From Hippasteria phrygiana (taxonomy: Eukaryota > Echinodermata > Asteroidea > Valvatida > Goniasteridae): 64,000 nt of DNA. Positions 30,479 through 61,154 of this stretch are shown one piece after another. How positions within the stretch are numbered: position 1 is the first letter of the stretch; every line of letters begins with the position of its first letter. The position numbers and the translations under genes are program-made. The DNA is taken from assembly GCA_037893225.1 (NCBI GenBank), contig JAZGUH010000696.1, forward strand, positions 248,001-312,000, in the 5' to 3' direction. The notes under the pieces are model-generated. The model was not told the origin of the DNA. It saw only the letters and a program-made list of their open reading frames with translations, and did not search any database.

Positions 30479-30665
30479 ATGGACCCGGAATGTAATGGGA
30501 CTCTGGTGAACGGAACGACGGGTTGTGATGCGGCGATGAACGGTACGGACCTGCCGGGAGTTACGGTGAAGGGCCCGAATACGAACATGGACGAGATGTA
30601 TAATAGCTGGGATGACGCAACATGGATCCTGACCAGTGCGTTTGTCATCTTCACTATGCAGTCCG
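30479..30665 (+). CDS. Ammonium transporter exon 1
   Basis: Residues 1-62. Encodes the extracellular N-terminus with N-X-T sites at N6, N11 and N21, then the first helix (DDATWILTSAFVIFTMQSG). Donor GTAAGT at 30666; phase 1. The in-frame upstream GTG at 30434 is not used because a well-placed ATG follows. Confidence 0.9.
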
Positions 30666-36600: not shown

Positions 36601-39600
36601 ACCTTGTCGGCATGGCAGAAAAACACTATATTTTGCTTAGATTTTGGACGAAGAATTTTCGCTGTACAATGTACACACAATGCATACCCGTGATGAATGG
36701 GTAATGTGCCTCGATCTACGTCACACACTTATGTTAATAAGGGTCCCACTCAGGGGGCGGAGTAGCTTGGACAAACATTTTCAATTTTTTTTTTCTCATA
36801 TTTAATCTGGGAAATAATTGTCTCTGGACACAAAATATCATTGTCAAGATAATACTTTATTGTTTTAAGCAGGAATAATGCAATATAAATCCTAAATCAT
36901 GTTTCCTTTAAAGTATTACCGCCAAAACGAACGCCTGTCGCCTTCTAACTTACTCCTTATTTTAGGGCCAAATTTCGCCTAATATAGTGTTTAATTTTAA
37001 CTGAGGGTAACCACGTGGTTCTCATATCATGTACAAAATTTAAAAAAGAAGCATATTGATACATGTAGTTAAAAATGAGCGTGTTTTGGCATAATTTTCA
37101 GCTTGTATTGTTTTAAATTTGCTTATCTCTAGTAGCTTTTGCCACGACAAGGAACGGTTTTGGGACGAACAAAATAAGAATTATTTTATTCGAAAAACCC
37201 AATAAGAAGTTTCCCATTGAGATCATACGGAAATAAAGACACGGTCCGGGAAGAAATGCTGGCGGTCTGAGACCGCTAAAATAGAGCGCCAGCACGGTGT
37301 TCCGGAGGTCGCAAGTTCAAATCCCACCTTTGTCGATTCTCTTTGTTCTTGGCAAATATTATACGAGGAGGGATACTGTGAAAATCATAGTACTTTATAA
37401 TTTTTAACCATGGCAACAAATTTGAAAAGCATAGTCCCGCCCTTCCTCAAAGCCCCTGAAACTGTGCCAGCTTCAGATAATTTTAACCTAGGGTAGAACA
37501 ATTGTCGGATTTATTGCCATAGCATCTTAAACATCGCATGTTATTGATTTTTTCAAGTTTTGTTAATATTTTCAACAACAAAAGATACGCGAACAATTTA
37601 TGAAGATTTTCTTTGGAAAATAGAAATACCTCTTAAATAATTCGAGTTTTGATATCTTAGATGGTGACAACCAGAAAACCATAGAAATTTAATGCAATCA
37701 TGCATGACGTATATGTCCTGTGATTGCATACAATTTTTTTCAAAAATAAATCATCTAACCCGCTGTTGAGTATACTTTGATGGGACAAAATGTTATGGAT
37801 ATGATGAGAAGACGTCAATCATAATTAGAACGACTCATGCACCGGTACTGAATGAATAGGGAGGGTCCAGGGGTGAGTTTGCTTTGTTTGTTTGTTTGTT
37901 TGTTTGTTGTGGTATTGGGGTGTTTGTTTGTTTGTTGGGGTGTTTGTTTGTTTGTTGAGGTGTTTGCTTGTATTTCTTTCACGCCAACATTAGTGTTTTT
38001 TTATTCCGTTGTGTATTTGTTTGCATTTAATGTACATTGTCTCAGAACAGGTTCAATCGGAGACCCTTTTTGTTTTTACGGTAAAACAAACGCTAGTCCT
38101 GAAACACCCCCCCCCCCCCGCAAAAGTTTCTGGATCCGCCCCTGTGAATACACGATTTTCCTCTTATGTGTAGATACATTTTACAAATTTGTCGGCAGGT
38201 TTTGGTCTGTTGGAATCTGGAATGGTCTCCAGAAAGAATGAAGTGAACATCATGGTCAAGAATGCTGTGGACGTCATCTTCGGTGGACTGACGTACTGGA
38301 TTTTCGGATTCGGCTTCAGCTTCGGAACCGGGCCAGGCTCCAACGCGTTTTGTGGTGCGTTGTTTAGGACCACCTCAAATGATTGTTTTCTAATTTAAAA
38401 AATCCAAATGGGATGGGGATGTTTAGGCGCGATTCCTGTCAGTGTTTCTTTTTGTTTCTTTTTAAATTAGATTTTTAAAGATTTCAAGGTTTTTTTTAAG
38501 GTGAGGACAGTTTTTGACATGAACCTGAATTGCATTAATTATGTCCTAATGCTAAACTGGAAGGGTGATCAGCTTTATAAGGCTAAAGTTCATAATTGTA
38601 TGTCAACTGTTTTCGATTTTTGATAGAATTGAATGTCCACACTGTGTTTACATATACAAATGTTCTGAGCAGACGTGTGTTTAAAGGCTATTTAAAGCGC
38701 CACCACTTCAAAACTGGGGCCAATTTCATAGAGCTGCTTAAGCACAAAATTTGCTTAAGCACAAAAACACCTTGCTAAATAGAATCAGGTTACCAGCTAA
38801 AACTTCATGTGGTATATATTGATTGTGACTGGTATTTAGCTGTTGTTTGCTTAGCATAAAAATCACATGGAATTTTTGCTGGTAACCTGATTTTACTAAG
38901 CAAGGTTTTTTTGTGCTTAAGCAAATTTTGTGCTTAAGCAGCTCCATGAAATTGGCCCCTGGTCCTTAAGCTTTTCAAAATATTTTGCATAAGCCGTTTC
39001 GCGGATACCGCCATCTTTACTCGATACCGCCATCTTTATAGGGGGCAAGCGCAAAATCCAATGCATGAACTCCATGGAGATTAGTGGCATGTGTGATGCA
39101 CTTCGTGCATGCGCAAGCCAATCGAGCAAAGATGGCTGTATCCGCGGAACAGCTTATGGCCAAAGGGTTACTTTTTTTTTAACGCAGATTTACAATTTGG
39201 TCAGCAAAAAAAGAAAAATGAAAACAGAAAGCTGCTTTCTATATTGTGATTTCTGCAATTCTTTCTTATTTCCTTCTTGGTCAGGTATTGGGCATTTCTT
39301 CACCGATTCGACAGATCCTGAGGAAATGGGATGGATCTTCGCTCAATTTGTGTTTCAGGCTTCATTCGCCACCACAGCAACAACCATAGTCTCCGGTGAG
39401 ATGGGAACTTGTATCCAGGTGGGGAGGGGGGGGGGGGCTTTGCACTGCCAAATATTTCCCAAATTTCCCCCTCCTCCCATTGTAAAAACATTTTGAAATC
39501 TAAGGGTGCATGTGCCATGGGATGTTTCCATCGATTGTGAGATGCTGGTGCTTTCAGTGCATAAACAAAAGGGAAAATGTCTCCGCGGGGTATAAGTTGC

Positions 39601-42600: not shown

Positions 42601-45600
42601 TTTCGATACTGGTATTTTCAAATCCTTTGGGATGACCATTAAAAATATGCTCAAGTCCACTGCCATCCCAACAAAGTTCCCAGATGTGAGTAAGATATAG
42701 GCGAAAGCAGTTAAACGGCCCATTTCCCGAGGAGCCTTCGCTAAAAGGGAGACAATCAGGGTAAGTTCGATGTTAGTTATTGTTGGAATTTACGAAATTG
42801 CACGTGTAGACCTAGTGTGTGTATACGGGCCGGGTCCAGACTATCGAGTCGATCCATGAATTTCGGTGCCTCGGTCTACGTCACGAACAGCGCCCTCAAT
42901 TTGAGTCTCAACAAATTTCCAAAAGGGGGGGTCAATTTTTGAGCGGCAAATAATCACACTAAAACTTCACTTGAACCAGTTTGGCTTTTAATTCACATTT
43001 AATCCATATAAATGAATTTATTTATGAAATAACATGTGATCCGGTCAATTTGAGTAACATGTTTCCTTTAAGGCTAAGCGAAAGTTTTACCAAAAATGGT
43101 TTCTGATCGCGGACTACAATTAGCTGGAAATTATAGTCGCCCAGCTGAACTAACCAACATATACGTGAAATAGACATGTGAATGTTTGAGCTAGCGTCAT
43201 CAACAGAGTTACAAGAAAATATTGAAAACTGTTGCTTTTTTACAGTACGTTTGTACACGTTTAAGTTTATTAGGTTTATTTCCAAATAAATTGAAACAAG
43301 CCATAGCATTTTTGGAGATCTTCCGATACAATTTTTTTGGGCGGAAATATTTCAACTTGGTTTTTGATAATGACCAGAGCTAGACCATAATCTAGCATCA
43401 AAACCAAAACACATGTGTATCGTCACCAGTGACGTAACTTGGATTGATTTTGCGGGGACGTTTTATCCCGAGTGCACCAATTTAGAGGGCATCAAGGAGA
43501 AGAAATACGATAGACTGGCTCCCGGTTCCCTTCATTATTGGAAGCGGGTAATAATAGTACTACTAACTAACACAAGCCTGGCAGAATTTTGCGGGATTTA
43601 TGCTAATTCGGGGTTTGTATACCGGTAATGTATTGCGGTGTTTTTAATCGCCGCAAAAACACAAGTAGGTTACATTTAACAAAACAAATTCTCTATGATT
43701 CAAACCCGTTTTTAAGAATTAGAACAGCATGCACTCTTAAAAATTTGAAAATATTACAGCGCATGCGCTCACGAGGGCCAATCAAAGGTGGCTTATCCGT
43801 ATTAGCTACAACACGTTCATATTTAACTGTTGATTTTCATTTTTTGCCTTTTTAAAGATATAAGATCAAAATGTGGCTACTTTTCCGTAAAAATGAAAAG
43901 TCTTGGCTAAAAATCGATATCAGGCAATGTAGCCTCAAATTTGGCCCCAAATAAGACATGCATGCAAAACCACGAGTAACCTAACAATAGAAAAGTATTT
44001 ATGAAAAACGACAGTTAAATGTAAACGTGTTCTACCAGCCCCAATAATTGGGGGAGGGTATCCGTCTAATAAATACAGTTGATCTACAATTGCATTCTAA
44101 AATCTTGATGGTGGTGTGTTTTTTTTGTTTTTGTTTTTTGTTAGGTGTTTGTTTGTTTGTTTGTTTGTTTAGGCGCGATGTACTCGTGGGCATAGCCTCA
44201 GTTGGAGGGGACGTCCCCGTAGTTATATTTACATTTTCCAAATCCATTTTGTCGTGATTGGAAGCAATTATCGAAAGAACCAAGGCATGACTAAGTGTCT
44301 TTCAATGGGAGGTTTTAAATGAGTTCAGCAAAAATCCTTGACTTCTTGATAGACAACACACACATAGCGGGTCTCGTCGATATAAAATATTCATGTCCGA
44401 CCGCGCGAAATGACAAATTCCGCTTCTCAGAATCCAGCGAAACGAATAATCCGCAATCAGCCGAAACTCAATCAGTGAAATTGAATGAGGTTGGAGCTCA
44501 ATGAGAATAGTCGTCGTTGCCGTGGATATGGGATGGGGGGGGGGGGGGAGTGAACTTATTGTCTTGTATTTATGAGGAATGTGATGCATGCAGCTCTTAG
44601 CAGTGAATAAATTGCATTTCAAATTTTAGCCAAATAAGATTCAGATCTTAACAAGCTGTTAATGCTTTCTAGCTATACACTTGCGGAGAGCTCGTTCATC
44701 ACGCCGTTTTCACAAAAGGGAAGAGGACCTTTCTTTCTCGTGCTATTTTTAGATCCTGCATTTTGTTTTGCCCCGAATTTTGTCAAGCTTTGAAGACCCC
44801 ATATTAATTAAAACATGTATTAAGCATCGACTGTTACAGGCATTTTCTCATATTTGCAAATCCGCCCATTTCGGAAAATTGCAACAATGACCAATCATGT
44901 ACACTGCCTTTAAATATTGCCCACAGATCTTTATTATTATATTGACATTACCGCAGATGTCACTCGGAATGGCACTGCGCATGCGCGTCATGAGTTTTAA
45001 CCGCGGTGGCTTTTTCTGACCTAGGATTTATCAAGAATCGTCTAGGGATCTAAAGGTCAGGGAAATAGACCAGTTCAGTGTTGGACCCGGAAATGGTCAA
45101 TAGTGACACTGACTACCATAATCTGACCCCGTGTGCGTCAAATGTGACTCTGCATGGTCCTGTTATGTCTCCTTACTGCAGGTGCGATGGCCGAGAGAAC
45201 TAAACTGGAGGCCTACTGCGTCTTCTCGTTGGTCAACACTCTCATCTATTGCTTCCCAGCCCATTGGATTTGGTCTGAGGATGGCGTCTTTGCTCGAATG
45301 GGTGCCATCGATATCGCTGGAGCCGGTAAAACCTGTAATATTTTACTATACCCGTTGTAAATTAATAAAATCTGGGTAATTTTAAAATTTATATTGGCGT
45401 GATTTTAACCTCCTGTAATATTATGGTGGGCTGGGGAAATTCATCACCGCTGGTGCTATTTGTCTAAAAGTCGTCGCTGCGGGCAGCAAACAAATCGACG
45501 TCATAGGACGAACTCCCCTTTTGTGTCTTGTGCTAGACACAAAAGGGGAGTACGTCCTATGACGTCAAATTGTTTGCTGCCCGCAGCGACGACTTTTAGA

Positions 45601-48600
45601 CAAATAGCACAAGCGGGCTAGAGGGGACTTGATATAAATAGCTCTCAAAAATTCCTTTTTTGGGTATTTCATGTTTGAATTTGCAATACGCAATCTACAT
45701 ACAAATATATAATGACGCAGACTTCTCTCACCACTGAACTTCTTCATCAAAAGAGACTACAAAAAGAAGCAAACGAGACGTAAACGGATGTCATGCAGCG
45801 CCTCAACTGTTGTAATCACCAGCAAGAATCACCGCGAATCTTGTCCGAACCTTGCCTATAGGCAACACGTCTGGTCGATCATACCATTGGCAATTGCGCG
45901 CTGTACAGGCTACTGCATCCGCCATATTTTCACTCACATTTTCCAATAGGCATGTGTGCTCTGTACTGTTGTGAACGATGACGAAGTAGACCCTGGGGAA
46001 AAGGGTGGTAAACCTATTGTATTGGGAGCGTTTAGATTTGTCTGGTTCCCAGAACAAAATATTCCGACTATTTCTGATGAATATTAAGGGCGTGTCCGAA
46101 TTACTTGGCTGCGCCTTGAAATTGCACACATGGCTATGGTAGTGGCTGCAGCCGCATCACATAGACTTGAGTGTAATTTCAAGCCGTAGCCAAGTAATTC
46201 GGACACGGCCTTAGGGTCCGGTAGCCGCCAATGTCACGTGACGAAAACTGGCAGAATTCTGCCAGTTTCTGAAGTTTTCCGAACTTGTTTTCTGTAACAT
46301 TCGGCTGTTACGTTAATGTTCGCAATAACAAAATGTCTGTCAGGCCCGTTACAGATCCTGGAATTTGAATTCTCAATTATATATAGAAACTGAAAAATCA
46401 ATGCCACACTCTTGTAGTGTTTTGCCGACTGGATTTTGCAAGAATATTAAATTTGAATGATGCCACTGACGTCACTCGGACTAACACTGTACGTCATGAT
46501 CTATTCTAAACCGTGGTAGCTGCCTGACCTAAGATGTAGACGTCAGGGAATCTTCAGGTCAGTGAACCAGACTACGTTTAGATGGCAGACGGCGGCTCAA
46601 ATTCGAACAGCCGATCGAAGCGCTATTAAACCAGTTTACATTACAGAGATCAGTGTTCGTTACCAGCCTCCAGGACACGGTCTCGTTGGTTATCAGCAGC
46701 AATTTGCCGTTTCATGTTAAACTGTGATATGACAAATGAAGCCAGAGACCAGTGACGTAAATATTCGAGCAGCAGTCCATCGCGCTTGGGTATATATTCA
46801 ATGGGGCCTCAGCTTCACCCCGGGAACTATTTTATCAACTTCCACTACATCGGGGAGCTAAAATCGACTACCCACCCCTTATACTATAGTACAGTACATG
46901 TATAAGTCCTCGATGGAACTCATTCCAAGATAAGTAATTAAAGTATCCAACAACTGTCAACAGTATACAACTATAATTCTTGGCAGAACTTGTTCATGAT
47001 TTTCAAGCCACGAGTGATATGTAATCTTTGTCGCGTTGCATGCAACGCGCATGCAGCTGCGGCAACGAGCCCCAACATTGATTTTCGGTTGCCATTTTGA
47101 CTCCCAGGGGCTGTCCATCTTGTCGGGGGCGCTACCGGCCTGGTGGCCACTTTGATGCTGAAGCCCCGTAGAGGGCGCTTCGACGGTAAGGGAGAGCCAG
47201 AGATGAGCAACCCGACCAACGCCCTCTTGGGGATGTTTATGCTGTGGTGGGGCTGGCTGGGTTTCAACTGCGGTAGCACCTTCGGTATCTCCGGTGGCAA
47301 GTGGAAGCTCGCCACACGGTAAGTTGCCTACTAACAGATCATAACATATTTTCCGTGATAATAGAATCACCAAAAAAATAATAAAAAATTTTCCCTTTAA
47401 TGTAACGAGACACGACCAGAAGCGTCAGTACTGGAGAGTAGAACATTCCATGGTTATTGCTCTGTCCGTGTTTGTTGTAGGATTGTTTTGCATGGTACCC
47501 CGAAAAATATATTTGAATTGCGAATTTGTTAGCATTAACTTATGAGACATTTTTACGGTGCAAATGTATTAATATTCGCGCGTCGTACATAATAAAACAA
47601 TGTTCTGGGAAAGTCAATGAGATTGCGGGTGACACAATGTGGAAATAATCTCTTTTAGGAAGATGTGAGGTTCTGAAAAGAACGGGGGTGAGAATGAGAA
47701 CTCTTTGTTTCGGCCAGTTCTCTGTCGATGTCTGTCCTTGGGAGAGTGAGAACAGACAGAGCACACTGTCCGAAACGTCGAGTTCTATTTTCACCCCGGT
47801 TCTTTTCAGAACCACACATCTTCGCAGAAGAGATTATTTTTACATGGTGTGACCCGCAATCTCTCATTTACTTTCTCATCGTTTCTACTGTGCGAAGCTT
47901 CAAATCGTAATATGTTCTGGGATGACCAATTAGAGTACATAGTAGTTAGTGTTTTGCGTTCAAAAATGCAGTTTTCTTGAGTAATTTGCAGCAGGGTTAA
48001 ATCTGTTAAATTGAAATTGTCAGTCGGAGCATAGGCATAGGGTCTCCGTACCACCACTGAATCCTTAGGGTGTTGTCGCTAATTGGAATGTGTTGATGTA
48101 GGCCTAATTCCCATATTCATCAGCCCTGAAATACGGGGACGCAATTTCAGGCAACAGATCGAGAATCGTTCCTGAATCGAGCAATCAAAAGTCGCTATTT
48201 CTGGATTTCGTATAGCAAGCCAGTAAAAATACATAATAAACACGTTGTTATACCGTCCGAATTCAACCACAGAAACATCACAGCAACAGCATCCCCATGC
48301 GTCAAGAAAAAACCCTAACATAACAAAACCTTCAAATTTTGATGCGCGATTTAAAAAGGGAACATTTGAAAAGGGCCGGTATGTTTTCTGCCATCACCAG
48401 CGTCTCCCTTGTGAACCTCAAACTTGATGAAAATGTAGGCAGCATGACCTTCGATCATATCAGAATCTTTCTGTAAGTTTAAACAATTAGCCTTTGAGAT
48501 AAATCCGCTGTATTATAGTATCTGGCCCTCCTTACTTTTTATGATTTAGGCCCCTATGCATTGCAGGTCATTCAGGGTGTTAATCCAGTTGTAGCTGTTT

Positions 48601-51600
48601 TTAGCCCATTTGATCTCCATAATCAATTGGTTGTAATGTTCCGTGAAATATTTGATCGTTAATTGACTTTGCCGATTTGATACCAGCCATAGTCAACATA
48701 GCTCTCTATGCGGGTCCAATTTGAAATGATTTCTAAATGCTTTAATTCATGGTTACTGTGAAGTTTGACTGCATTTTTCACTTTTCCAGGGCTGCTATAA
48801 CCACACTGTTGGCGTCATCTGGCGGTGGTCTGGTCGGACTTGCAGTTAGCTGGACAGCCCGCCCAGCCGGGCGAAAATTTGACATTGGCTATATAAATAA
48901 TGGGGTCTTAGGGGGTCTAGTTGGAATAACAGGTGAATTTATGACAGAAATTGATCAACGGAGAACTCCTAGAAATATCATATTTGGTTTGGTAACTCGC
49001 AGTTTAAGCCTGCATCGCCTCATGTTGCGGGCACCGGCAGCATACAAACAGGTAGCGATATTACAAAATATCTCAGGCGCTTGCCAAATATTTCCAAATA
49101 ACAAAACATACTTGGAGCCAGTCTATGGAGTTACAGGGAAATGCTATGCTAGCAGGACATGTATATAACCAGCCAAAATTGCGTGCGGTTTATAGTGATT
49201 GTGACTGGCTCGCAGCTGATTTCTGTATGCTTGGTAACTCCAATGCGGTCCACACGTTGTAGTTTTGCTAAGAAAAACTTGCTAAGCAATATTTTGTGGT
49301 AAGCAGCTTTATGAAATTGGGCCCTGGTTGTAGCTGTGGCGCCAAATCAAAAACGCATTCGCGTGGCGGAAAAAAAACAAATGGTATCCTGCATGAAATA
49401 GTAGTCTGCATGAAATAGTAGTCTGCATGAAACAGTATTCTGCACGAAACAGTATTCTAGAGAAAATTTGGATTATTATTTTGCAGATTTGCACTTAGTT
49501 AGATGAGAACATTCTGTACAAAATTCGCTGAACAATAAGCGATTGACTTGTGGACAGTTTAACTTTTGCGAGAACAGCAACAATCTTGACCACTGTTATT
49601 CATGTTTAAATAAACAGGCGGACAGGCTTTGCGAACCCGATCTCTGATATTTCTAAGAAGTACTCTCGAAGTTGTGGTTGTAGTTTTGGTTTTGTTAAGT
49701 GTCAGTGACCCTTTTCTATACTTTGTGTCCCTCTTCTTGCTGTAGGTCAGCCATGGTGACCATTACGTCATCAATCGGAGGGGGCGTGACTGGACTAACC
49801 ATCAGTTGGACCACGCTAAATCGCAAATTGAACATTAACTATTTAATCAACGGTGTATTGGGAGCTCTCGTAGGCAGCACAGGTGAATTCTGGTTTCCAC
49901 ATGCAACTTTCTCAATTTCTGGCGACAAATATGTTTGGAATATGATCCTCTGCACGTTTGCCAGTGCATGTATTAGAATCTTAAGAGAGACCACCTTACC
50001 CAAATCAATTTGTTGGAAAAACCTGTCACTTTGGTCAAACTCAAATCAACAGTGCGTGTTTTGTTTACTGTACACTTTGTTGTTTTCCGTTACCCATTCC
50101 TACCCATTCTTACCAAAATGAAAAGAGTTCTGGGTAATGGAAGGGTTAGGACAGACTATACGTATATCATTTACGATGTTTCTAAGATTATAAACGGGGA
50201 CCGAATAAAATAATGATTTGAGAAGTCTTCAGAATGGAACAGTATATTTGTAACTTTGGTTGGTCGTATTGTTTGAATGGCTGCTTTGTTCGTCTGTCGA
50301 GTCGCCACTGTGTTTCTTTGTTTCAACAAAACGTTTGTTCGTCTGTGCGCTGTGCGTCTTCGATCTATCTGTTTGTTTGGGAAGTTATTTGCAACAGAGA
50401 CTCCCACAACTCTCTACGACCAAACTCCGTGGAGGAAAAGTGGAAGTAAAAGATGGCTATATCTAATTACTGTCCCGGGAATTTTCTTCAGACTGGCGAA
50501 TTTAAAACGAGACATATTAAAAAGGAAAATATTCACCAAGATTCATTAGATTTTTGTTCTTGGTGGGCATCCTCCAAAAGGGATTTCGTGTATTTCAACA
50601 AATCCAAATGTCTGCATGTTATTTATTATTGTTCTAACCCCGAATACTTCCGGTGTACAAAAGCATGATTAACAAATTTGCATGATGCATTTAAACAAAA
50701 CAATACACAATTATCGAACCCCAAAGTGTAAAAAGTTTGCTTTAAAAGCTTCTGCTTGCCTGCCCACCTTCCGTTTATTTGATTTCCCCGTATGTGTCAC
50801 CATCCTTTTCTGTTATTAGATTATATTCCTCTGTGTGAAAGAAACTTTAAGATTGGACTTCGTTAAAAACAATACCACAGGAAAATTCTTTGTATTCATT
50901 AGCGGAGTTAAAACGTCAGACCAGGCTGCTTTTGCAAACACACACGCGATGAAACCATTGAAAGCTTTCCCAATACACATGATTAAATAGGGAATGCATT
51001 AAGTAGTGTACATGTATGTTGAATAGTCTAACGCAATACACACTATAACTTAAGCCATTGCAGAGAATTATAGAGAACAATGTAAAAATGTAAAAGAAAA
51101 TCTTGTCTTCACGAGTAACGCATACAAGAAAGTGACGAAGAAGCTTTGGGCGGTTTAAATGGATGTAAACTACAGGCGTTCCCTGCAGAATGTCACATCA
51201 TATTTCGGTATTTTTTTGTCTTCATTATACCCCATAAGCTTTTGGCTGCGTTTTAAAACAAAAGCAATTTCCTTATAACACCTCTTACAGATATTTTGGA
51301 CCTTATACATAATACGTCTCTTTCTGGTAGTTAATAGAACCGGGAGTGGATAACCATTGATGTCAAACGGCTTATGCGCCTATTAATTGCTTCCCCCACC
51401 CCTCCCCCGGGCTGCCGGGGTCTTATGTGGGGGTTTGGTCACGTTTTCAAGCCCCAGGGTGGGGATTTTTTGTCATTCATTTTGCCATTGTTTCCCCATC
51501 ATCAGAAGTTAAAACAATGAGGTGGGGTGCCCCACCTATGTATGTCGGGGATTGTCACTAAACAATTTCCCCAGGGGTGGGGATTTTGTCACTTCAAAAG

Positions 51601-54600: not shown

Positions 54601-57600
54601 GTTTTTTTGCTTAGATATTTAACAATTCTTTGTGATTTGTTTTTCTTATTTGGGGGAAATGTAAACTAAAATATCAGGGTTTTTTTGAAACAAATAATGT
54701 ACATATTTAAAAGGCAACATTTGGAAAATATACTACTTGCTTTTTTGTCAGTAAAATATTCCTGCAACAAAGCCCCGAATTTAGCCTCCAAATAAGATGT
54801 GCTTACCAAACAATGAGTAACTTCCCTGCGTCGGTGGAAAATAAACGTGTTATAGTAAAATGCAGCAATAATACTGTACTATATTTTGTTGATATCACCA
54901 GCTATATGCGCCCTGGCCAGACCGTGGGAGGGGCTTGTGATCGGCGCCTTTGGAGGAGCTATAGCAGTAACCACGCCCCGTCTCTTAGAGAAGATGAAGA
55001 TTGATGACCCTGTAGGGGTGATTGGCGTCCATTTGCTGGCGGCTGTCTGGGGGCTGGCCGCCGTAGGCCTCTTCGGAAAGCCAGACAATATCGAGAACCT
55101 GACCGACCAATCAGGTGAATAGACTTCACCATCACTTTCTATCACTTTTGTATGTGAACGTTTTGGTACTAAACACTGACTAGTCTAGCGACGAACTCTT
55201 CAGTCTGTCTGCGTACAGCAGTGTAAATGAAAGATTGATCGGAGTTGGAGGTCAAATTTTTCAGCATTATTTTTGATGCAGTGGTTTTTAAAATGTCGTA
55301 CATTGACATGCCTCATTTTCCTTCACGAGACCACATAATTGTATTTTTTCTGTTCAGCCCACTCAGAAAACAAAATAATTTCATAAAATAGGACGCCGGA
55401 GACGTTGTATCTTTCATACGGTTTGTGCCGAGAGATTTGTCGACCGAGTCCAAAAATGGCGTCTCCGGTGCTACCGCTTGGTGGCGCACTGCACTTTGAA
55501 ACACCAAAACTCCAGCAAGCAAACTTATGAACAAATTTCAAAAAGCATAAATAAATCATGTAATTTGAGACGTTTGCAATAATCCGAGAGAATAATCTTA
55601 CAGTCAATAATTTAGTTTTTCCCCAAATTATTTTGACCGGTCCGTCACTATATGACCATTATACTGCCACCAAGAGTTTGCCAATGTCATTCATTTAAAA
55701 ACTAATAAACACCAAATCTTGGAGCAAGTTCGGTTGGGCGACTAGAGTGACTAGACTTAACCATTAGTTAATTTAGATGTCACGCGAACGCTGCGTGGTT
55801 TGACTAGCTAGTCCAACTGGATCAACCTAGCTCCAGACTATGGTTTCTCTAGTCACTCGCGAGTTACGTCACGGTTTCAAGATGGAGGATAGCCTAACTG
55901 GGCAAGTTTTGCAAACGTTTACGATAAATTGTTGATTTTGTCCAATGATAATAACTCTTTGCAATAAGATAATGAATTATTTATTGCACTAAAGTTAAGT
56001 AGAGAAAATAATAGAAATAAATAGCCAATAAAAATGACGTGCCAACATTTGCTTCGTGAACAACTAGCAGACGACATTCTTTGCAGTTTGTCGTTGCTAC
56101 ACACTAACTAGATTTGACGTAGTCGATCGACTAGATGCGTTCGAGTGAAAAACAGACCACGCATGCGTCTTTTAAATAGAAAATTTACAAAATGGACTAG
56201 GTCAACAACACCCGAATTTGCTCCTGGCTGAACATTATCAGTTACCTGTAATACCGTATACAGCCCGAAATTTTGCACCGGATAAGACATGCTTGCATAA
56301 TTAGGGGCCAATTTCATAGAGCTTAAGCACAGAAAAACCTTGCTTAGTATAATTAGGTTACCAGCCAAAAGTCCATGTGATTATTATGCTAAGCAAACTA
56401 CTGCTAAATACCAGTCACAGGCAACATACATCACATGGAGTTTTGGCTGGTAACCTGATTTTACTGAGAAAGGGTTTGTCAGGGGCGAATCCAAGATTAT
56501 TTGCGGGGGGGGGGGGGGGGGGGGTTCTGATTTTTTTCTTTGTACGTTTGCCCAAAAAGTTGACTCCCAAAAAGTTTCGGGGGGGGGGGGGGGGGGGACA
56601 CACACTTTCTCAACGTTGGTGGCGCCACTTAACCTCTGTTTTGTTCTTACCCGTACACGCAAAATAAGACCTTTACAGGGTTTTGCTTTCCTGGTTTGCA
56701 ACTTTAGGCGTAAGCAATTACATGTACAATAAAACAGATTGCCAACGAGCGGGGGGGGGGGGGGGGGGGTGGGTGACCCCCACCACCCCCTCTGGATCCG
56801 CCCCTGTTTTGTGCCTAAGCAAATTGTTTGTGCTTAAGCAGCTCTATGAAATTGGCCTTAGGAGTTTAAAAGCTAATGAAATTCTTTTTTGTCTCTTTGT
56901 TAGACAATGGTTGAGTTCTTTTAGATTGTCTCTTTCTTATCCAGCCCTGACCAGTTGGCGCAACTCAGATTTCACCCGACCCCCTTAATTGTTTTCTGTG
57001 CAGTCATGCATGAAAACTAATCCAGTAAAAATGTCACCAAAAGAAGCAGGAAGAGTTACTCTAAAAGTACATTATGAAAATATCTTATCTATATTGCTAC
57101 AGAATAAAACTATGGCCAATTTTAAAAGTGTATAGTATTTTTTACTCACACTTTTGTATAATGGAATGAGTGTGATGTACGTTGCACACGTATCGTTGAC
57201 AGTGTGCATATTTGCCGACAGCAGCTAGATTGATTGCCTCCGGTCTCTCTACACGATCCTGACGGCAAACGAGATGCAGTTGGGCTAAAGAATGGTTATT
57301 TCTACAAACATAAGTCTTGGATATGTTGAAATACAGATTTAACTCTCCCTTTTTGTCTGAACTAGATTGTAAAAACTTCAGGAACTGAGAAATATGGACT
57401 AGAAAAGGATGAATTTGTCGCCCGAAATGTTCTGATTTCACTAAAATATAGCAATGGATTTTCTGTACAATTGCACCCTTTCGGAGTAATGGATCGGTAT
57501 ATGTTCGCAGTATTATGTAAAATGGGACACATCTGCCAATATATCTATATTCCTAAGTTTGGACCTTTGAATTTTTCGTTTAGGATGACCCTAGAGATGG

Positions 57601-60417
57601 TTGTTTACACACGTTATTCGTCGTTGTCAAAGGATATTATGCGGCAACTGGTGCCCGTGGGTGCACGGGTGACTGGTAACAAGAAACCAAAGTGTACCCG
57701 AATAATTCATACGTGTTTAGACATAATGTAGAGACTGCAACTAAGCTGGAAAGTAGGTTGTGGGTATACCATGGAAAAAAATATTTCTTTTTTGAGGAAG
57801 TGCTGGCTCTGAAAAGGAGCAGATAAGGTGTCGGCGTTTCGAACAATGTGCTCTGTTGGTCTTCAGGAGACTGCTGAAAGATGGAAAAAGCTGGTGTTTA
57901 TAAAAGATATACGGTGAAGTCGTTCACCGGTTTTCACATCAACAACATCTAGTCACCTGTACTCTATTAGGCTGACAATGGGTCTTCAAAACCCACCCAG
58001 CCACCATGGGTCCAAAAACCCACCCAGCCACCATGGGTCCAAAACCCACCCAGCCACCATGGGTCCAAAACTCACCCAGCCACCATGGGTCCAAAACCCA
58101 CCCAGCCACCATGGGTCCAAAACCCACCCAGCCACCATGGGTCCAAAACCCACCCAGCCACCATGGGTCCAAAACCCACCCAGCCACCATGGGTCCAAAA
58201 CCCACCCAGCCACCATGGGTCCAAAACCCACCCAGCCACCATGGGTCCAAAACCCACCCAGCCACCATGGGTCCAAAACCTACCCAGCCACCATGGGTCC
58301 AAAACCCACCCAGCCACCATGGGTCCAAAACCCACCCAGCCACCATGGGTCCAAAACCCACCCAGCCACCATGGGTCCAAAACCCACCCAGCCACCATGG
58401 GTCCAAAACCCTCCCAGCCACCATGGGTCAAAAACCCACCCAGCCACCATGGGTCCAAAACCCACCCAGCCACCATGGGTCCAAAACCCACCCAGCCACC
58501 ATGGGTCGATCCAAAACCCACCCAGCCACCATGGGTCGATCCAAAACCCACCCAGCCACCATGGGTCGATCCAAAACCCACCCAGCCACCATGGGTCCAA
58601 AACCCACTAAGCCACCATGGGTCCCAATCCTATACTCTTGCCTTCATTGCCTCTCATCCACCCCAGCTGCCATGGTTTTCCCAATCGCCTATAATATCCT
58701 GAATGGTTTCCCATCACAGCAACCGTTCTCATCATCGATATAGCCAAGCCACCATTATCCCGAACCCGGACCAGCCAGCACGATTCCCGACCGAACCCAA
58801 CCACAATGGGTCCCAAAACCTATCTAGCTATCATGGTTTTCCAAATCCACCCCATCCACCCAGTGGTCCCCATTCAGCCCAACCCACCCTGCAGGGTTTT
58901 CCACCCAACCCATGCTATTTAATTGCAGTATACCATTTCTCAAGGGCTACAATATCAAATTTTTCGTTTTGTTTTCCTAGGTTTGTTCTACGGTGGTGGG
59001 TTCCGTTTGCTGGGAGTACAGATGTTGATGGCACTATCCATGTTTGTCTGGACCATAATCACGGCGTATATTCTTCTCATTGCCATCAAGATGACAGTTG
59101 GCTTACGGTAAGCACGAAAACAGGCGGGTCTCTTGACGGTAATACGGGAAGTTATTGTGGCGCGCCAGTGGTAAAAACCAACGCCGTAGCCACACAATGT
59201 TGTATTTGGAAACGTCCTATATTGACAAAAAAAATACCGTAAAAATTACAGTTTTCGGCACATTTTTATGTTAACGTGGGGATACGTCAACCTTTGTGTC
59301 ATTCAGATTAACTGCAAAAAATTATGTCAAAGTGCGGTGGATTGTAACTACTTGACTCTTATTGTGAAGAGTATTTTTGGCTTTACATCTGTCTAGAATA
59401 AAGTGATTGGTAATTTTGACATTTTCTCTTTAGCATGGAAAGGAAAAATACAAGATAATGCTGTCGAACTTTACAAAATGCGTAGGCCTACATTAAAGAA
59501 TAGTCATAATCGTCTCACGCAAAATCAGTGGCATGTCTAGCAGACGTGGGGAGAATCTCCGGCAACATTTTGCCGATTATATTATTTATTAAATTTTAAT
59601 TTCATTTATTTTTAGAGTCCACTTTACAAGCGCTACCACTTTATAGTTGGTGCGGTCACACCCCAACCCCCCTACTTTCAAAACATTGTTCATTTTTCAG
59701 GCTAAAATTTTCTTTTTATATTCCCCCCCCCCCCCTCCCCCGTCAAAACTTCGATACGCCACCGTAAACCGCACGAAATTGTTATTTAGAACGCCTGTTG
59801 AAAATTGCCATATTATAGACCCGAGTATTTTCAACATGTGCTTTTTGAATCGAAAATATTAATTACCATACCACTTAGTGATAATTAGTAATGCCGATTG
59901 AAAACAAAATTGTGTGAAATACTGTCAAACTTAAGTTTTAAGTATTTTCCAGTCAAATCGAACACGTATTTATAAGAACATTTTGATGACATACATCAGA
60001 TGCTCCGTCGAACATGAAATCTTGGGCGCCGATATCTGCGAGCACGGCATTAACCAGCTGGGGCCGGACGAGCGACTGGCGGTCACCAAAGAGCTGCACA
60101 GCCTGGGCTACGAGTCCCCATTTGACTGCCCTAGTCCCCGCGTTCGGCTGCGGAGCGCCTCCAGCCGCCGGCGGTCCTACACGACTCACAACCCCAGCGT
60201 GGCAACCGTGACTGGTACGGTCAAGCTCCCGAGTGCCACTGACGGAGTCCACGGTACCACCAACTCGTATCTCACGCCGAACACCGGTGGCTCGGACCAG
60301 ACGGAACTGGATCTGGTCGGTCAGAACTGGATCGTGTTAGAGAGTGCTAATGATAAACACAGGAACGGTCTTCCGCAACCAGAGGAGTTGACACTCTCAG
60401 CCAATGAATCACCAAAG
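30479..60417 (+). CDS. Ammonium transporter, Amt/MEP family (10 exons seen, C-terminus not identified)
   Basis: Plasma-membrane channel-like transporter that moves ammonia/ammonium across the membrane, used by aquatic invertebrates in nitrogen excretion and uptake. Joining the exons (one of exons 6/7) gives about 570 codons. Seen: three N-glycosylation sites near the N-terminus, helices throughout, ASFATTATTIVSGAMAER (exon 3/4), D195-I-A-G-A-G-A-V-H203 with the first pore His and the conserved Asp, WWGWLGFNCGSTFGISGG (exon 5), the alternative exon 6/7 segment, RPWEGLVIGA and GVIGVH361L with the second pore His (exon 8), and EHEILGADICEHG at the start of the cytosolic tail (exon 10). The twin His and GADICEHG-type tail favour Amt over Rh proteins. 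All junction phases agree (1,1,1,1,2,then 2 in/1 out for 6 or 7,1,2,0). The start has a good Kozak context (A at -3, G at +4). Confidence 0.92.
30985..31558 (-). mobile_element. Tandem dimer of a tRNA-derived SINE (period 313 bp)
   Basis: Two direct copies share CAGAAGTCATAAACCCAGAA at 31000 and 31313 and run on in register. Each contains, on the minus strand, a tRNA-like head with a TAGCTCAGTTGGTAGAGC D arm/A box and a GGTTCGAATCC B box (heads at about 31190-31262 and 31500-31558). The acceptor stem does not close and the base before the anticodon is not T, so these are SINE heads, not tRNA-Thr genes. The second head is cut off inside its D arm. A third copy lies at 33596-33826. Located in intron 1. 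Confidence 0.7.
31857..31888. repeat. Long G tract, about 28 bases
   Basis: Almost uninterrupted G run in intron 1 with one C near the end. G-quadruplex potential is obvious. Probably length-polymorphic. Confidence 0.8.
31999..32072 (+). repeat. tRNA-like SINE head or tRNA pseudogene
   Basis: Contains a perfect A box (TGGCTCAGTGG at about 32006) and B box (GGTTCGAATCC at about 32051) with tRNA-like spacing. The anticodon and acceptor stems do not pair, so it is not a functional tRNA gene. Confidence 0.5.
33596..33826 (-). mobile_element. Third copy of the tRNA-derived SINE of 30985-31558
   Basis: Same order of landmarks (GGAATCGAACCTGCGACCTC, ACCGGCGCTCTACCAACTGAGC, GGCGGTCTCCCAAATTGTC, CAGAAGTCATAAACCC, GGAAGCGACATTGTGGGGAT), with a few substitutions. 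Single copy here, in intron 1. Confidence 0.7.
34250..34445. repeat. Small inverted repeat
   Basis: AGCCCTAACTCCCAC near 34253 with CCCTGCCAAATGCAACAGAA near 34287 is mirrored by TTCTGTTGCATTCAGCAGGG and TTAGGGTTAGTGGC ending near 34443. MITE-like, intron 1. Confidence 0.5.
34903..35128. repeat. Small inverted repeat with GTGTTTAGC arms
   Basis: ACACTGCAGAAACAGTGTTT AGCAA at the left is complemented by TTGCTAAACACAGTTTTTAG AGTGT at the right. Probably a MITE, intron 1. Confidence 0.5.
35762..35948. mobile_element. G/C-tract element with GGGGCGGATCTAG ends
   Basis: GGGGCGGATCTAG near 35761 and CTAGATCCGCCCC near 35945 are inverted termini; CAGCC lies just outside each end. A C tract of about 16 bases sits near 35796. 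Same family as 29625-29812. Confidence 0.65.
35972..36907 (-). mobile_element. Kolobok-like THAP element, copy 2 (936 bp, complete ends)
   Basis: AGGAAACATG at 35972 and CATGTTTCCT ending at 36907, each next to TTAA (35968-35971, 36908-36911). The minus strand carries the THAP segment (about 36310-36610: MPTR-CVAAGC lead, LHLFPTD, AIPT), broken by an in-frame TAG and a small deletion beside the second Cys pair. TTAA targets together with a THAP finger are the hallmarks of the Kolobok superfamily; no DDE catalytic domain is present. Intron 1. Confidence 0.75.
37250..37335 (+). repeat. tRNA-like fragment
   Basis: A B-box-like AAGTTCAAATCCC follows GCGCCAGCACGGTGTTCCGG AGGTCGC. Only the 3' half resembles a tRNA, so it is a SINE remnant at most. 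Confidence 0.35.
37881..37965. repeat. GTTT microsatellite
   Basis: Repeats of TTTG with interrupting GGGG words in intron 1. A similar TTTG run occurs at 44145-44172 in intron 3. Confidence 0.7.
38199..38354 (+). CDS. Ammonium transporter exon 2
   Basis: Residues 63-114: GFGLLESGMVSRKNEVNIMV, then helix 2 region with FGFSFGTGPGSN. The SGMVSRKNEVNIMVKN block is the classic Amt signature after helix 1. Acceptor GGCAG|G, donor GTGCGT at 38355; phase 1 at both ends. Confidence 0.92.
38716..38959. mobile_element. Hairpin MITE with GGGGCCAATTTCAT ends
   Basis: The 244-bp element is nearly self-complementary: GGGGCCAATTTCATAGAGCT, CTTAAGCACAAAATTTGC and CAGGTTACCAGC on the left return inverted on the right. 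Same family as 4320-4573 and 56304-56858. It lies in intron 2, 330 bases before exon 3. Confidence 0.75.
39285..39395 (+). CDS. Ammonium transporter exon 3
   Basis: Residues 115-151: IGHFFTDSTDPEEMGW, then helix 3 with FVFQASFATTATTIVSG, which contains the Phe-rich gate region. Acceptor TCAG|G, donor GTGAGA at 39396; phase 1 at both ends. Confidence 0.92.
39796..40030. repeat. Inverted low-copy repeat of AAGTCC / GGACTT words
   Basis: GTCGAGTCCCTGCAAGTCC near 39812 is mirrored by GACTTGCAGGGACTTGTG and GGACTCGAC near 39988-40016, with many AAGT and GTCA words between. Non-coding, intron 3. Confidence 0.5.
40205..40235. repeat. Long G tract
   Basis: G run of about 25 bases in intron 3. Another G-rich stretch lies at 41486-41522. 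Confidence 0.8.
40811..41053. mobile_element. MITE with TAGGGACCATT ends, copy 1
   Basis: TAGGGACCATT at 40811 and AATGG-TCCCTA ending at 41053 are inverted termini. The arms continue with GATACGCGTACGGGGTACGT and its complement, giving a strong hairpin. Intron 3. Confidence 0.75.
41055..41302. mobile_element. MITE with TAGGGACCATT ends, copy 2 (immediately adjacent)
   Basis: Starts one base after copy 1 ends and has the same termini. Its body is inverted relative to copy 1: the AACATC/GATGTTG-type centre and the CACCATTTTG segment are in opposite order. The two copies differ at many sites, so this is not a recent duplication. Confidence 0.7.
41891..42123. other. Unassigned intron 3 stretch with a GGGGGG/CCCCCC pair
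   Basis: A CATCCCCCCGG...GGGGGGGGAGAATA block near 41925-41960 could pair internally. No gene. Confidence 0.35.
42124..43067 (+). mobile_element. Kolobok-like THAP element, copy 3 (944 bp, complete ends)
   Basis: AGGAAACATG at 42124 and CATGTTTCCT ending at 43067 abut TTAA on both sides (42120-42123, 43068-43071). Inverted relative to copies 1 and 2. It encodes the THAP finger on the plus strand (separate entry). Both subterminal regions match copy 2 throughout, including the CGTCACGAACAGCGCCC block near 42880. No transposase catalytic domain, hence a non-autonomous Kolobok-type element. Intron 3. Confidence 0.78.
42419..42700 (+). pseudogene. THAP-domain ORF inside Kolobok-like element
   Basis: 93-codon ORF. 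THAP is a C2CH zinc-dependent DNA-binding domain used by P-element, Kolobok and related transposases. Seen: MPTRCVAAGC at residues 1-10 (first Cys pair), LHLFPTD at 21-27, RRIWTAKL with the invariant Trp at 34, LCSDFEPSCFD near 57-67 where the second Cys is present but the zinc-binding His expected after CSD is missing (3-base deletion; copy 1 keeps it), and the AIPT motif near 84-87. The frame ends soon after the domain. Without the His the finger should not fold, so I treat it as a degenerate transposase N-terminus. Confidence 0.75.
43072..45181. other. Rest of intron 3, no gene seen
   Basis: Contains a TTTG microsatellite (44145-44172), a G tract near 44536, and a repeat fragment at 44860-44912 shared with 13140-13200. 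No conserved coding segment. Confidence 0.4.
45182..45325 (+). CDS. Ammonium transporter exon 4
   Basis: Residues 152-199: AMAERTKLEAYCVFSLVN, helix 4 with FPAHWIWSEDG, ending in DIAGA with the conserved Asp. Acceptor TGCAG|G, donor GTAAAA at 45326; phase 1 at both ends. Confidence 0.92.
45453..45610. mobile_element. Long hairpin MITE, about 76-bp arms
   Basis: GTGCTATTTGTCTAAAAGTC at 45453 is complemented through to GACTTTTAGACAAATAGCAC at 45610, with CGACGTCATAGGACG and ACTCCCCTTTTGTGTC within the arms and a loop of about six bases near 45531. Only a few mismatches. The right flank (AGCGGGCTAGAGGGGACTTG) is shared with the copy at 27491-27660. Intron 4. Confidence 0.75.
46038..46574 (-). 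mobile_element. TAGTCTGG MITE, copy 2, with 9-bp target duplication
   Basis: Starts TTGTCTGGTTCCC and ends GTGAACCAGACTA. CGTTTAGAT lies on both sides (46029-46037, 46575-46583). Inverted relative to 12478-12873, with which it shares most of its length. The extra length is due to a nested element at 46086-46214. The 9-10 bp duplications suggest a Mutator-like origin. Confidence 0.75.
46086..46214. mobile_element. Nested hairpin element, AGGGCGTGTCC ends
   Basis: AGGGCGTGTCCGAATTACTT at about 46088 is complemented by AAGTAATTCGGACACGGCCT ending near 46212, with TGAAATTGCACAC / GTGTAATTTCA deeper in the arms. TA or TTA flanks each side. It is absent from the copy of the host MITE at 12478-12873. 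Confidence 0.7.
47108..47318 (+). CDS. Ammonium transporter exon 5
   Basis: Residues 200-269: GAVHLVGGATGLVATLML with the first pore His (203), loop KPRRGRFDGKGEPEMSNPTN, helix WWGWLGFNCGSTFGISGG, ending KLATR. Acceptor CCCAG|G, donor GTAAGT at 47319. The exon leaves in phase 2 (CG of an Arg codon), which both exon 6 and exon 7 complete with G. Confidence 0.92.
47600..47910. repeat. Inverted repeat containing the TCTGAAAAGAAC block
   Basis: GAAGATGTGAGGTTCTGAAA AGAAC at 47659 is mirrored by GTTCTTTTCAGAACCACACATC TTC ending near 47822; outside this GAGATTGCGGGTGACAC pairs with GTGTGACCCGCAATCTC. The centre carries a GACAGAGCACACTGTCCGAA AC motif (47754-47776). Related pieces occur at 14465-14535, 23680-23765 and 57805-57880. 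Lies in intron 5. Confidence 0.55.
48790..48932 (+). CDS. Ammonium transporter exon 6 (mutually exclusive alternative A)
   Basis: Residues 270-317 in isoform A: AAITTLLASSGGGLVGLAVS, linker WTARPAGRKFDI, then GYINNGVLGGLVGIT, corresponding to helix 7 and the start of helix 8 of bacterial AmtB. Acceptor TTCCAG|G, donor GTGAAT at 48933. Enters in phase 2 and leaves in phase 1. 143 bases. Confidence 0.88.
48933..49745. other. Intron between the alternative exons 6 and 7
   Basis: 813 bases. The part 49040-49325 resembles the hairpin MITE family of 38716-38959 (TGTGACTGG, GCTAAGAAAAACTTGCTAAG, TTTATGAAATTGGGCCCTGG) as a diverged copy. It also has four repeats of a TGCATGAAATAGTAGTC-like unit (49390-49460). 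It is too long for simple steric exclusion between exons 6 and 7, so exclusive splicing would need another mechanism such as RNA pairing or frame-dependent decay. Confidence 0.5.
49746..49882 (+). CDS. Ammonium transporter exon 7 (mutually exclusive alternative B)
   Basis: Homologous to exon 6, with about half the residues identical by eye: SAMVTITSSIGGGVTGLTIS, shorter linker WTTLNRKLNI, then NYLINGVLGALVGST. Acceptor GTAG|G, donor GTGAAT at 49883, the same donor hexamer as exon 6. Enters in phase 2 and leaves in phase 1, so it can replace exon 6 exactly; splicing 6 to 7 gives a TGA stop five codons in. 137 bases, two residues shorter than exon 6. The open frame shows no stops or indels, arguing against a dead duplicate. 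Confidence 0.85.
49883..51371. other. First part of intron 7, no gene seen
   Basis: No recognisable coding or repeat unit; the short overlapping ORFs at 50010-50668 lack motifs. Confidence 0.4.
51375..51667. mobile_element. MITE with TGCGCCTATTAATTGC ends and TTA duplication
   Basis: TGCGCCTATTAATTGCTTCC at 51375 and GGAAGCAATTGATAGGCGCA ending at 51667 are inverted termini, each next to TTA (51372-51374, 51668-51670). The subterminal GGGGTGGGGC / GCCCCACC words are also mirrored. A 3-bp TTA duplication fits PIF/Harbinger-type elements. Intron 7. Confidence 0.7.
51730..52165. repeat. Dispersed repeat related to 12280-12460 and 13140-13200
   Basis: CATCCTGTGAAATCATGGCACCTG, CATCGTTGGAAAAC and the end CATTTCTGAAAATTATAA...TACTACCTTTAA are diverged versions of sequences around 12310-12430 and 13155-13200, with the same spacing order. 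Apparently one family of about 0.5-0.9 kb. Confidence 0.5.
52309..52584. mobile_element. MITE with GTATATGGGTCATTC ends
   Basis: GTATATGGGTCATTC at 52309 and GAATGACCCATATAC ending at 52584; the arms also share AAGTGTGACATTTTTGGTGTCCC-like sequence and its complement. 276 bp, intron 7. Confidence 0.7.
52819..53265. mobile_element. MITE with TGTGACCCACTCTGC ends
   Basis: TGTGACCCACTCTGCAAAAA GGGCACAT at the left is complemented by ATGTGCCC TTTTTGCAGAGCGGGTCACA at the right. 447 bp. The ORF at 52984-53358 lies across its right end and has no motif. Confidence 0.7.
53266..54195. other. Intron 7, repeat fragment only
   Basis: GGTACCAAACACTGACTAGTC near 53725 recurs as GGTACTAAACACTGACTAGTC near 55163, on the other side of exon 8, so one repeat family flanks that exon. 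No gene seen. Confidence 0.45.
54196..54500 (+). mobile_element. G/C-tract element of the CAGGGGCGGATCC family, copy c
   Basis: CAGGGGCGGATCCAGGATTG at 54196 is the family left end. The interior has the GACTCCCAAAATG-like phrase, a G tract of about 25 bases near 54341, CTTTCTCAACGTTGGTGGCG, and TTGCTACGGTACTTTAGG. The right terminal repeat is missing. Confidence 0.6.
54902..55114 (+). CDS. Ammonium transporter exon 8
   Basis: Residues 318-388: AICALARPWEGLVIGAFGGA, then LLEKMKIDDPVGVIGVH with the second pore His (361), LLAAVWGLAAVGLFG and loop PDNIENLTDQSG. Acceptor CACCAG|C, donor GTGAAT at 55115; phase 1 at both ends. Confidence 0.92.
56304..56858. mobile_element. Hairpin MITE of the GGGGCCAATTTCAT family, interrupted
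   Basis: The left end GGGGCCAATTTCATAGAGCT and right end AGCTCTATGAAATTGGCC match the family at 38716-38959. The right arm is split by a 327-bp G/C-tract element (56480-56806). Intron 8. Confidence 0.7.
56480..56806 (+). mobile_element. G/C-tract element of the CAGGGGCGGATCC family, copy d (complete)
   Basis: CAGGGGCGAATCC at 56480 and GGATCCGCCCCTG ending at 56806; TTTGT-like sequence flanks both sides. Three G tracts (about 56505, 56581, 56751) separate the family phrases GTTTGCCCAAAAAGTTGACT, CTTTCTCAACGTTGGTGGCG and TTGCAACTTTAGGCGTAAGC. This is the best copy for defining the family. Confidence 0.75.
57800..57900 (-). repeat. Dispersed TCTGAAAAGGAGC...TTCAGGAGACTG block
   Basis: On the minus strand it contains CTGAAGA (57860-57866), a stem-loop of about seven base pairs around AGCACA, and CGAAAC. 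A second copy is at 14465-14535 and a partial one at 47660-47820. The boxes resemble a hammerhead ribozyme core but are not a perfect match (see findings). Confidence 0.4.
57985..58618. repeat. Minisatellite, 26-bp unit, about 24 copies
   Basis: Unit CCACCATGGGTCCAAAACCC ACCCAG, nearly perfect. Three units near 58505-58595 carry a 4-base insertion (GTCGATCC instead of GTCC). Because 26 is not a multiple of three and the unit lacks stops, long ORFs appear in several frames on both strands; they are artefacts. Diverged units (CCACCCCAGCTGCCATGG) continue to about 58900. Located at the end of intron 8, about 360 bp before exon 9. Confidence 0.95.
58981..59107 (+). CDS. Ammonium transporter exon 9
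   Basis: Residues 389-430: GLFYGGGFRLLGVQMLMALS followed by the last helix (FVWTIITAYILLIAI) and KMTVGLR. Acceptor TCCTAG|G, donor GTAAGC at 59108; enters phase 1, leaves phase 2. Confidence 0.92.
59108..59999. other. Intron 9, no gene seen
   Basis: AT-rich intron with one C tract near 59725. No repeat ends or coding motifs recognised. Confidence 0.5.
60000..60417 (+). CDS. Ammonium transporter exon 10 (cytosolic tail)
   Basis: Residues 431-570: CSVEHEILGADICEHGINQL, the conserved start of the Amt C-terminal tail, then a basic Ser/Arg stretch (PRVRLRSASSRRRSYTTHN) and a Ser/Thr-rich, probably regulatory region. Acceptor CATCAG|A. A strong donor GTGAGT at 60418 in phase 0 implies at least one more exon; if unspliced, the frame would run on to a stop at 60472-60474. 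Confidence 0.88.
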
Positions 60418-61154
60418 GTGAGTCCAGGGCCAATTCCAATTTCCATTCTTGCATGGAAAGTCTTTTTGGTATGAACGGATTGCCAACCATTATTTCTATG
60501 TGATATAATTTATCGTCGCTGTTATTCACCAGATGTACATAGGGTAACCAGACCGTTGTATTATGAGCAGTGCCTCCTAGTGTCATAATGTCTTCAGCCC
60601 CCCCCCCCCCCCCCGCTTTTCGAATTTCTTTGGTCGGCTGAGATTTTGGTCACCCCCATCTCCCACTCGTCATCTCCCATCCCCCACTCGCCATCTCCCA
60701 TCCCCCACTCCCCACGGATTTACGCCACTGCCCTGATCTGGAGATTTCCCGACGACTTTTTACTAAATCTTGGGTCAGGCAGTCAAACTGCGTCCCTTGA
60801 TTCTGCTATTAGAATAGGCGACAGCATCACATGCACAGCTCGCAAACTCTCAACAGGGGGCGTATTTGATGTTACAAACAACCTCTATGATTTTCTTTGC
60901 CGCAGCAGGACAGACCGACGAGGGATCTTGACTTGGGCGCTGACAACCCAACCTTTGATGCACCATAGAGTCGTTCTGCTAGTCTTTCCATCGTTATTGA
61001 GTCCGCACAGAGAGAAAAATTGTCTATCGTCTAGTAAAAAAGTTTAGGGGCGTCGCTAGACCATTTTGAATGGGTGTGTCATCACAATTTTGCCGACGGG
61101 GTGTGAAGGAAAAAATGGCCCGAAAAATGGCCATCCGAAAAATAATTAGAAACT
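60418..61154. other. Start of intron 10 or downstream region
   Basis: A C tract near 60598 and a short tandem CATCTCCCATCCCCCACTCG array at 60645-60712. The 133-codon ORF at 60646-61047 overlaps the array and has no motif. No convincing terminal transporter exon was found here. Confidence 0.45.

What the first reader, a model, noticed from the sequence alone, without database searches (positions are those of the whole stretch)
48790..49882. Mutually exclusive homologous exons in an Amt-type ammonium transporter
Exons 6 and 7 encode homologous peptides (GGG, GL, SWT, RK, NGVLG, LVG shared; about half identical by eye), have the same phases (in 2, out 1), the same donor hexamer GTGAAT, and intact open frames. 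Either fits between exon 5 and exon 8. Alternative exons for a membrane segment are known in ion channels and transporters; I know of no described case for Amt proteins, but I cannot search the literature.
Basis: partly seen in the sequence, partly recalled or inferred. Interest (0 to 1): 0.88.

Follow-up and report, generated by a model that had tools for sequence, protein, structure and literature searches.

The report
Two interchangeable exons in ammonium transporter
A starfish ammonium-transporter gene carries two alternative versions of the exon for two neighbouring membrane helices, built so that an intact protein can contain only one of them; related starfish proteins show one version while sea urchin and sea cucumber proteins look more like the other, but no RNA data were available to show how the choice is made.

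Summary
An 11-exon Amt gene (PF00909) lies at 30479-60968, + strand. Exon 6 (48790-48932, 143 nt) and exon 7 (49746-49882, 137 nt) are diverged copies of one exon: 26 of 47 aligned residues identical, same phases, GT-AG sites, open frames. Exactly one must be used: one alone gives 590 or 588 aa; both or neither shifts the frame to an early stop. Exon 7 matches orthologs of two starfish (43/47, 38/47). Exon 6 is nearer the orthologs of three urchins and two sea cucumbers, and only these five of 120 homologs have a 49-residue segment like exon 6. So the pair probably predates the split of starfish from urchins and cucumbers; the 47-column tree alone does not prove it, and in it the urchin forms stand apart. 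The exon encodes TM7, a cytosolic loop and TM8; the twin pore histidines are in constant exons. Most likely this is a mutually exclusive exon pair that tunes the transporter without changing its pore. No transcripts were available, no other species was shown to hold both exons, and the open-access listings searched gave no described Amt case.

The parts
30479..30665 (+). Exon 1 (coding part, from ATG)
   Evidence: splice sites, frame
38199..38354 (+). Exon 2
39285..39395 (+). Exon 3
45182..45325 (+). Exon 4
47108..47318 (+). Exon 5, constant; holds the first histidine of the pore pair (GAVHLVGG) and the WGWLGFNCGS stretch; ends in phase 2
48790..48932 (+). Exon 6, alternative copy A (143 nt), TM7-loop-TM8, 49-residue segment like that of urchin and sea cucumber orthologs
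49746..49882 (+). Exon 7, alternative copy B (137 nt), TM7-loop-TM8, the form in Acanthaster and Asterias orthologs
54902..55114 (+). Exon 8, constant; holds the second histidine of the pore pair (GVHLLAA); begins in phase 1
58981..59107 (+). Exon 9
60000..60417 (+). Exon 10, cytosolic C-terminal region begins
60906..60968 (+). Exon 11, C-terminus and stop
48933..49745 (+). Intron between the two alternative exons, 813 nt, too long for steric exclusion

Best explanation
Exons 6 and 7 are a mutually exclusive exon pair in a starfish Amt ammonium-transporter gene. Each mRNA that gives a full protein contains one of them. Shown by sequence: both are homologous, intact and interchangeable, and using both or neither shifts the frame. 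Inferred: transcripts with both or neither are removed by nonsense-mediated decay; the splice choice is regulated; the choice swaps TM7, the cytosolic TM7-TM8 loop (six or eight residues) and TM8 while leaving the twin pore histidines unchanged, so it tunes regulation, subunit contacts or lipid contacts rather than selectivity. Inferred with moderate confidence: the copies arose before starfish split from sea urchins and sea cucumbers.
For: Frame and splice anatomy: each exon alone gives 590 or 588 aa open; both gives a stop after 321 aa, neither after 303 aa. Homology far above chance. A search of the held genome with the exon-7 peptide gave four matches, of which only exon 7 and exon 6 cover its length, so no second copy of the gene explains it. 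Exon 7 form in Acanthaster 43/47 and Asterias amurensis 38/47; the forms of three urchins and two cucumbers have 25-32 identities to exon 6 and 21-26 to exon 7. A 49-residue segment occurs in 5 of 120 homologs, exactly those five. These proteins are orthologs: clade of nine rows at 99/95, starfish 100/99. The segment tree with the insertion columns removed puts exon 6 with the two cucumbers (83/85) and exon 7 with the two starfish (98/94). Exon 6 is 0.77-0.88 changes per site from the cucumber forms, against 1.03 for the rest of the gene to Apostichopus, so it has not decayed freely. Of 10 segment positions at least 90% conserved in the 120 proteins, both exons keep 10. Structure: segment = TM7 + loop + TM8, loop 6 residues in the exon-7 form and 8 in the exon-6-like form.
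Against: No RNA data. The source names of the two starfish proteins and the S. purpuratus protein do not say 'isoform', which suggests that only one form was annotated there. No genome other than this one could be checked for the pair. In the segment tree the three urchin forms do not join exon 6 but stand apart with two distant rows on a weak fork (76/84), and with 47 columns the AU test rejects neither an older nor a starfish-only duplication (p 0.323 and 0.227). The crinoid ortholog fits both exons about equally, 28 identities each, and lacks the insertion. Intron pairing that could enforce the choice was not resolved. The loops named in fungal Mep2 gating are ICL1 and ICL3, not the TM7-TM8 loop (passages of PMC4852598).
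Confidence: 0.77

Rival explanations
1. Exon 6 is a silent relic in starfish: the pair was once used, urchins and cucumbers kept one copy, starfish now use only exon 7.
For: Both annotated starfish orthologs carry only the exon-7 form and are not labelled as isoforms. Exon 6 has a long tip branch in the segment tree (0.46; exon 7, which has a close starfish neighbour in the tree, 0.037).
Against: Exon 6 has intact splice sites and frame and keeps 10 of 10 conserved positions, and its distance to cucumber forms is no larger than that of the rest of the gene; an exon unused for that long would be expected to decay (inference).
Confidence: 0.15
2. The exon duplication is starfish-only, and the likeness of exon 6 to urchin and cucumber forms is convergence.
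For: AU test does not reject it (p 0.227); the urchin forms do not group with exon 6 in the segment tree.
Against: Exon 6 has the 49-residue length found in 5 of 120 homologs, all urchin or cucumber orthologs; third codon positions of the two copies are only 29% identical; the 20 of 31 direct-repeat families shown include none in register between the introns beyond seven bases after the donors.
Confidence: 0.06
3. Assembly or tandem-gene artefact: exon 7 or 6 belongs to another gene copy.
For: The genome has a cluster of Amt genes on another contig and one Amt stretch present twice.
Against: Each other exon of this gene has one match in the window (E up to 1); in the genome only these two places match the exon-7 peptide over its length; in the three paralogs examined this stretch is split by an extra intron.
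Confidence: 0.02

Closest known systems
Mutually exclusive exons in human solute carriers (SLC25A3, SLC39A14/ZIP14; passages in PMC5740500; NKCC2/SLC12A1 exon 4 variants recalled, no call)
   Same: Alternative exons in a membrane transporter of which one is chosen; a frame shift if both are used is one of the described safeguards (passages of PMC5740500).
   Different: Different transporter families; there the choice is supported by RNA-seq, here it is untested.
Animal Amt genes (Anopheles AgAmt)
   Same: Amt subfamily of the same transporter family.
Rh-family alternative splicing: AgRh50a/b in Anopheles
   Same: Splice variants of a relative of Amt, tissue-biased.
   Different: A further exon near the 3' end that changes the C-terminal region, not a swap of homologous exons (passages of PMC4216128).
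Paralogous Amt genes of the same starfish genome (one on contig C262, two on C410)
   Same: Outer exon borders at corresponding residues.
   Different: In the three paralogs examined TM7 and TM8 lie on two separate exons and each was found once in the fetched stretches; the Amt genes on C245, C453 and C185 were not resolved at this place.

Membership tests
Mutually exclusive homologous exons | Neighbouring internal exons with sequence similarity, same reading frame, length difference up to 20 residues, GT-AG sites favoured, no in-frame stop (prediction criteria in passages of PMC5740500) | tested here: met
   143 and 137 nt, phases 2 and 1, 26/47 identical, GT-AG, open
Mutually exclusive homologous exons | Joint inclusion gives a frame shift (one of the described safeguards, not required of every pair) | tested here: met
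   Both: stop after 321 aa; neither: stop after 303 aa
Mutually exclusive homologous exons | Splice-junction reads from each exon to flanking exons, bridging the other | not testable with these tools
   No RNA data held
Mutually exclusive homologous exons | Pair conserved in relatives (supporting, not defining) | tested here: inconclusive
   Both forms exist among orthologs, but no single other species was shown to have both
Amt ammonium transporters (PF00909) | Family profile over the whole domain | tested here: met
   E 2.8e-115 and 3.5e-114 for the two isoforms, profile positions 2-395 of 399
Amt ammonium transporters (PF00909) | Amt fold with 11 helices and twin histidines in TM5 and TM10 | tested here: met
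Amt ammonium transporters (PF00909) | Transports ammonium | not testable with these tools
   No assay

The most novel reading that the evidence does not exclude
An ancient exon pair, older than the split of starfish from urchins and cucumbers, gives echinoderm Amt transporters two interchangeable TM7-TM8 modules that alter subunit coupling or regulation while the pore stays the same.
Probability: 0.4. Interest if true: 0.62.

Novelty: new member of a known kind. Interest (0 to 1): 0.47.

Why it matters
Mutually exclusive exons that swap part of a membrane transporter are known in other families; the listings searched here showed none for Amt/Mep/Rh transporters. If used, the pair would be a natural experiment on which parts of an Amt trimer can vary without touching the pore, and a possible way for an animal to run two transporter settings from one gene. 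It is also an exon duplication whose age could be dated across echinoderms.

Tried and rejected
Region-restricted homolog searches with the exon-6 and exon-7 peptides returned none and one protein (P0001); at that database size the default E-value cut-off was probably too strict for 47-49 residues, and the searches were then spent. RNA pairing between introns 5, 6 and 7: best duplex energy -66.0 (introns 5-6), -58.1 (6-7), -70.8 (5-7) against best values of two shuffles each, -60.3/-59.9, -58.4/-64.3, -63.1/-66.4; only two shuffles were finished, so this is evidence neither for nor against a docking structure. Steric exclusion rejected because the intron between the exons is 813 nt. Tandem-gene artefact rejected. 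AU tests did not decide the age of the duplication. A dN/dS estimate was not useful: one method saturated, the other gave dN 0.48, dS 1.01.

The literature statement rests on full-text searches of an open-access library, of which mostly the listings were seen. Passages were read in PMC4238959 (its 'mutually exclusive' is not about exons), PMC4216128, PMC5740500, PMC4852598, PMC7048316, PMC6338640 and PMC10794816. Searches were for analogues and structure.

Full report
The gene. The window holds one complete Amt-type ammonium transporter coding sequence on the + strand with 11 coding exons between 30479 and 60968, all introns GT-AG. Both possible proteins match Pfam PF00909 (E 2.8e-115 and 3.5e-114). 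A tree built without the disputed stretch places the gene beside Acanthaster (96/89) within starfish (100/99), in an ortholog clade of nine rows with three urchins, two sea cucumbers and the crinoid Antedon (99/95); it used 30 of the 120 homologs listed. The window lies in a held genome of 944 Mb in 1285 contigs, contig C696.

The pair. Exon 6 (48790-48932) and exon 7 (49746-49882) both begin in phase 2 and end in phase 1. Used alone, either one joins exon 5 to exon 8 and gives an open protein of 590 or 588 residues. With both, a stop follows after 321 residues; with neither, after 303. The peptides share 26 of 47 aligned residues; the score of 127 compares with a maximum of 65 in 5,000 shuffles. 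Identity by codon position is 64, 78 and 29%: the copies have long diverged and were held at the protein level. The repeat finder, which works without gaps and showed 20 of 31 direct-repeat families, gave a 68-nt stretch at 72% covering the end of the exon and the first seven intron bases, and no further similarity in register between the introns.

One gene, not two. Each other exon has one match in the window at E up to 1. In the held genome the exon-7 peptide has four matches at E up to 1: exon 7 itself, exon 6, and two partial matches in other Amt genes. The same search with exon 6 and a DNA search did not complete. In three paralogs (one on C262, two on C410) the same stretch is divided over two exons by an extra intron, and each exon was found once in the fetched stretches; the Amt genes on C245, C453 and C185 were not resolved at this place.

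Two forms with separate relatives. The proteins of the starfish Acanthaster planci and Asterias amurensis carry the exon-7 form, 43 and 38 of 47 identical. The proteins of the urchins Diadema antillarum, Strongylocentrotus purpuratus and Lytechinus pictus and of the sea cucumbers Apostichopus japonicus and Holothuria leucospilota are nearer to exon 6 (31, 30, 25, 32 and 31 identities) than to exon 7 (26, 25, 21, 25 and 25); the crinoid Antedon has 28 to each. Of 120 homologs, 110 have a segment of 47 residues, four of 46, one of 50, and five of 49; the five are exactly these urchins and sea cucumbers, and exon 6 has 49. With the insertion columns removed, a tree of the segment alone (30 of 120 homologs plus both exons) puts exon 7 with the starfish (98/94) and exon 6 with the sea cucumbers (83/85), but leaves the urchin forms apart, with a scallop and a sea anemone row on a weak fork (76/84). 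With 47 columns the AU test rejects neither 'exon 6 plus urchin and cucumber forms are one clade' (p 0.323) nor 'exons 6, 7 and the starfish forms are one clade' (p 0.227); the insertion and the identities, not the test, favour the older origin. Exon 6 is 0.77-0.88 changes per site from the cucumber forms while the rest of the gene is 1.03 from Apostichopus, so exon 6 has been kept about as well as the rest of the gene, as far as two trees of different length can be compared. Of 10 segment positions with at least 90% conservation among the 120 proteins, both exons keep 10.

How the choice could be enforced. Frame breakage of both-exon transcripts is a described safeguard (passages of PMC5740500) and is met here. 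The 813-nt intron between the exons makes steric exclusion unlikely. Pairing between introns was not resolved. Whether a splicing factor selects one exon by tissue or stage is unknown.

What speaks against it. There are no transcripts. The source names of the two starfish and the S. purpuratus proteins carry no isoform label, so only one form may have been annotated there; the Apostichopus protein is called isoform X3, so that gene has several, of unknown kind. No other echinoderm genome could be inspected. The urchin forms do not group with exon 6 in the segment tree. The main rival is that exon 6 is unused in starfish today.

Novelty. Searches of the held open-access library for mutually exclusive or duplicated exons in ammonium transporters or echinoderms listed no Amt case; several listings were capped and subscription papers are not held. 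As a kind, mutually exclusive exons in transporters are known, so this is a new member of a known kind, in an unusual family and possibly of great age.

Noticed in passing
57978-58624: Minisatellite of about 24 copies of a 26-base unit inside intron 8.
   Followed up: no
47619-47863: Imperfect hairpin with 77-nt arms, 87% complementary, in intron 5, perhaps a small transposon remnant.
   Followed up: no
36097-36573 and 42327-42790: Two related stretches in introns 1 and 3 of the gene, in opposite orientation; the second encodes a THAP domain (PF05485, E 3.2e-9); a piece of the first that was scanned gave no family.
   Followed up: partly
17856-19154, - strand: Open frame of a rhodopsin-family receptor (PF00001, E 2.6e-39).
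   Followed up: partly
8625-11734, + strand: Two long open frames that look like a retroelement; the second (10760-11734) matches reverse transcriptase PF00078, the first was not scanned.
   Followed up: partly
60900-60910: Exon 11 acceptor reads CAG-CAG, so a three-base alternative acceptor is possible.
   Followed up: no
G000 contig C410 1074781-1122967; contig C185 near 1.86 and 1.93 Mb: Cluster of several Amt genes on C410, and an Amt gene stretch present twice with almost equal scores about 68 kb apart on C185.
   Followed up: partly
L011, L014, L015: In three paralogous Amt genes TM7 and TM8 are on separate exons, so the gene here lost, or the paralogs gained, an intron, presumably before the exon was copied.
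   Followed up: partly
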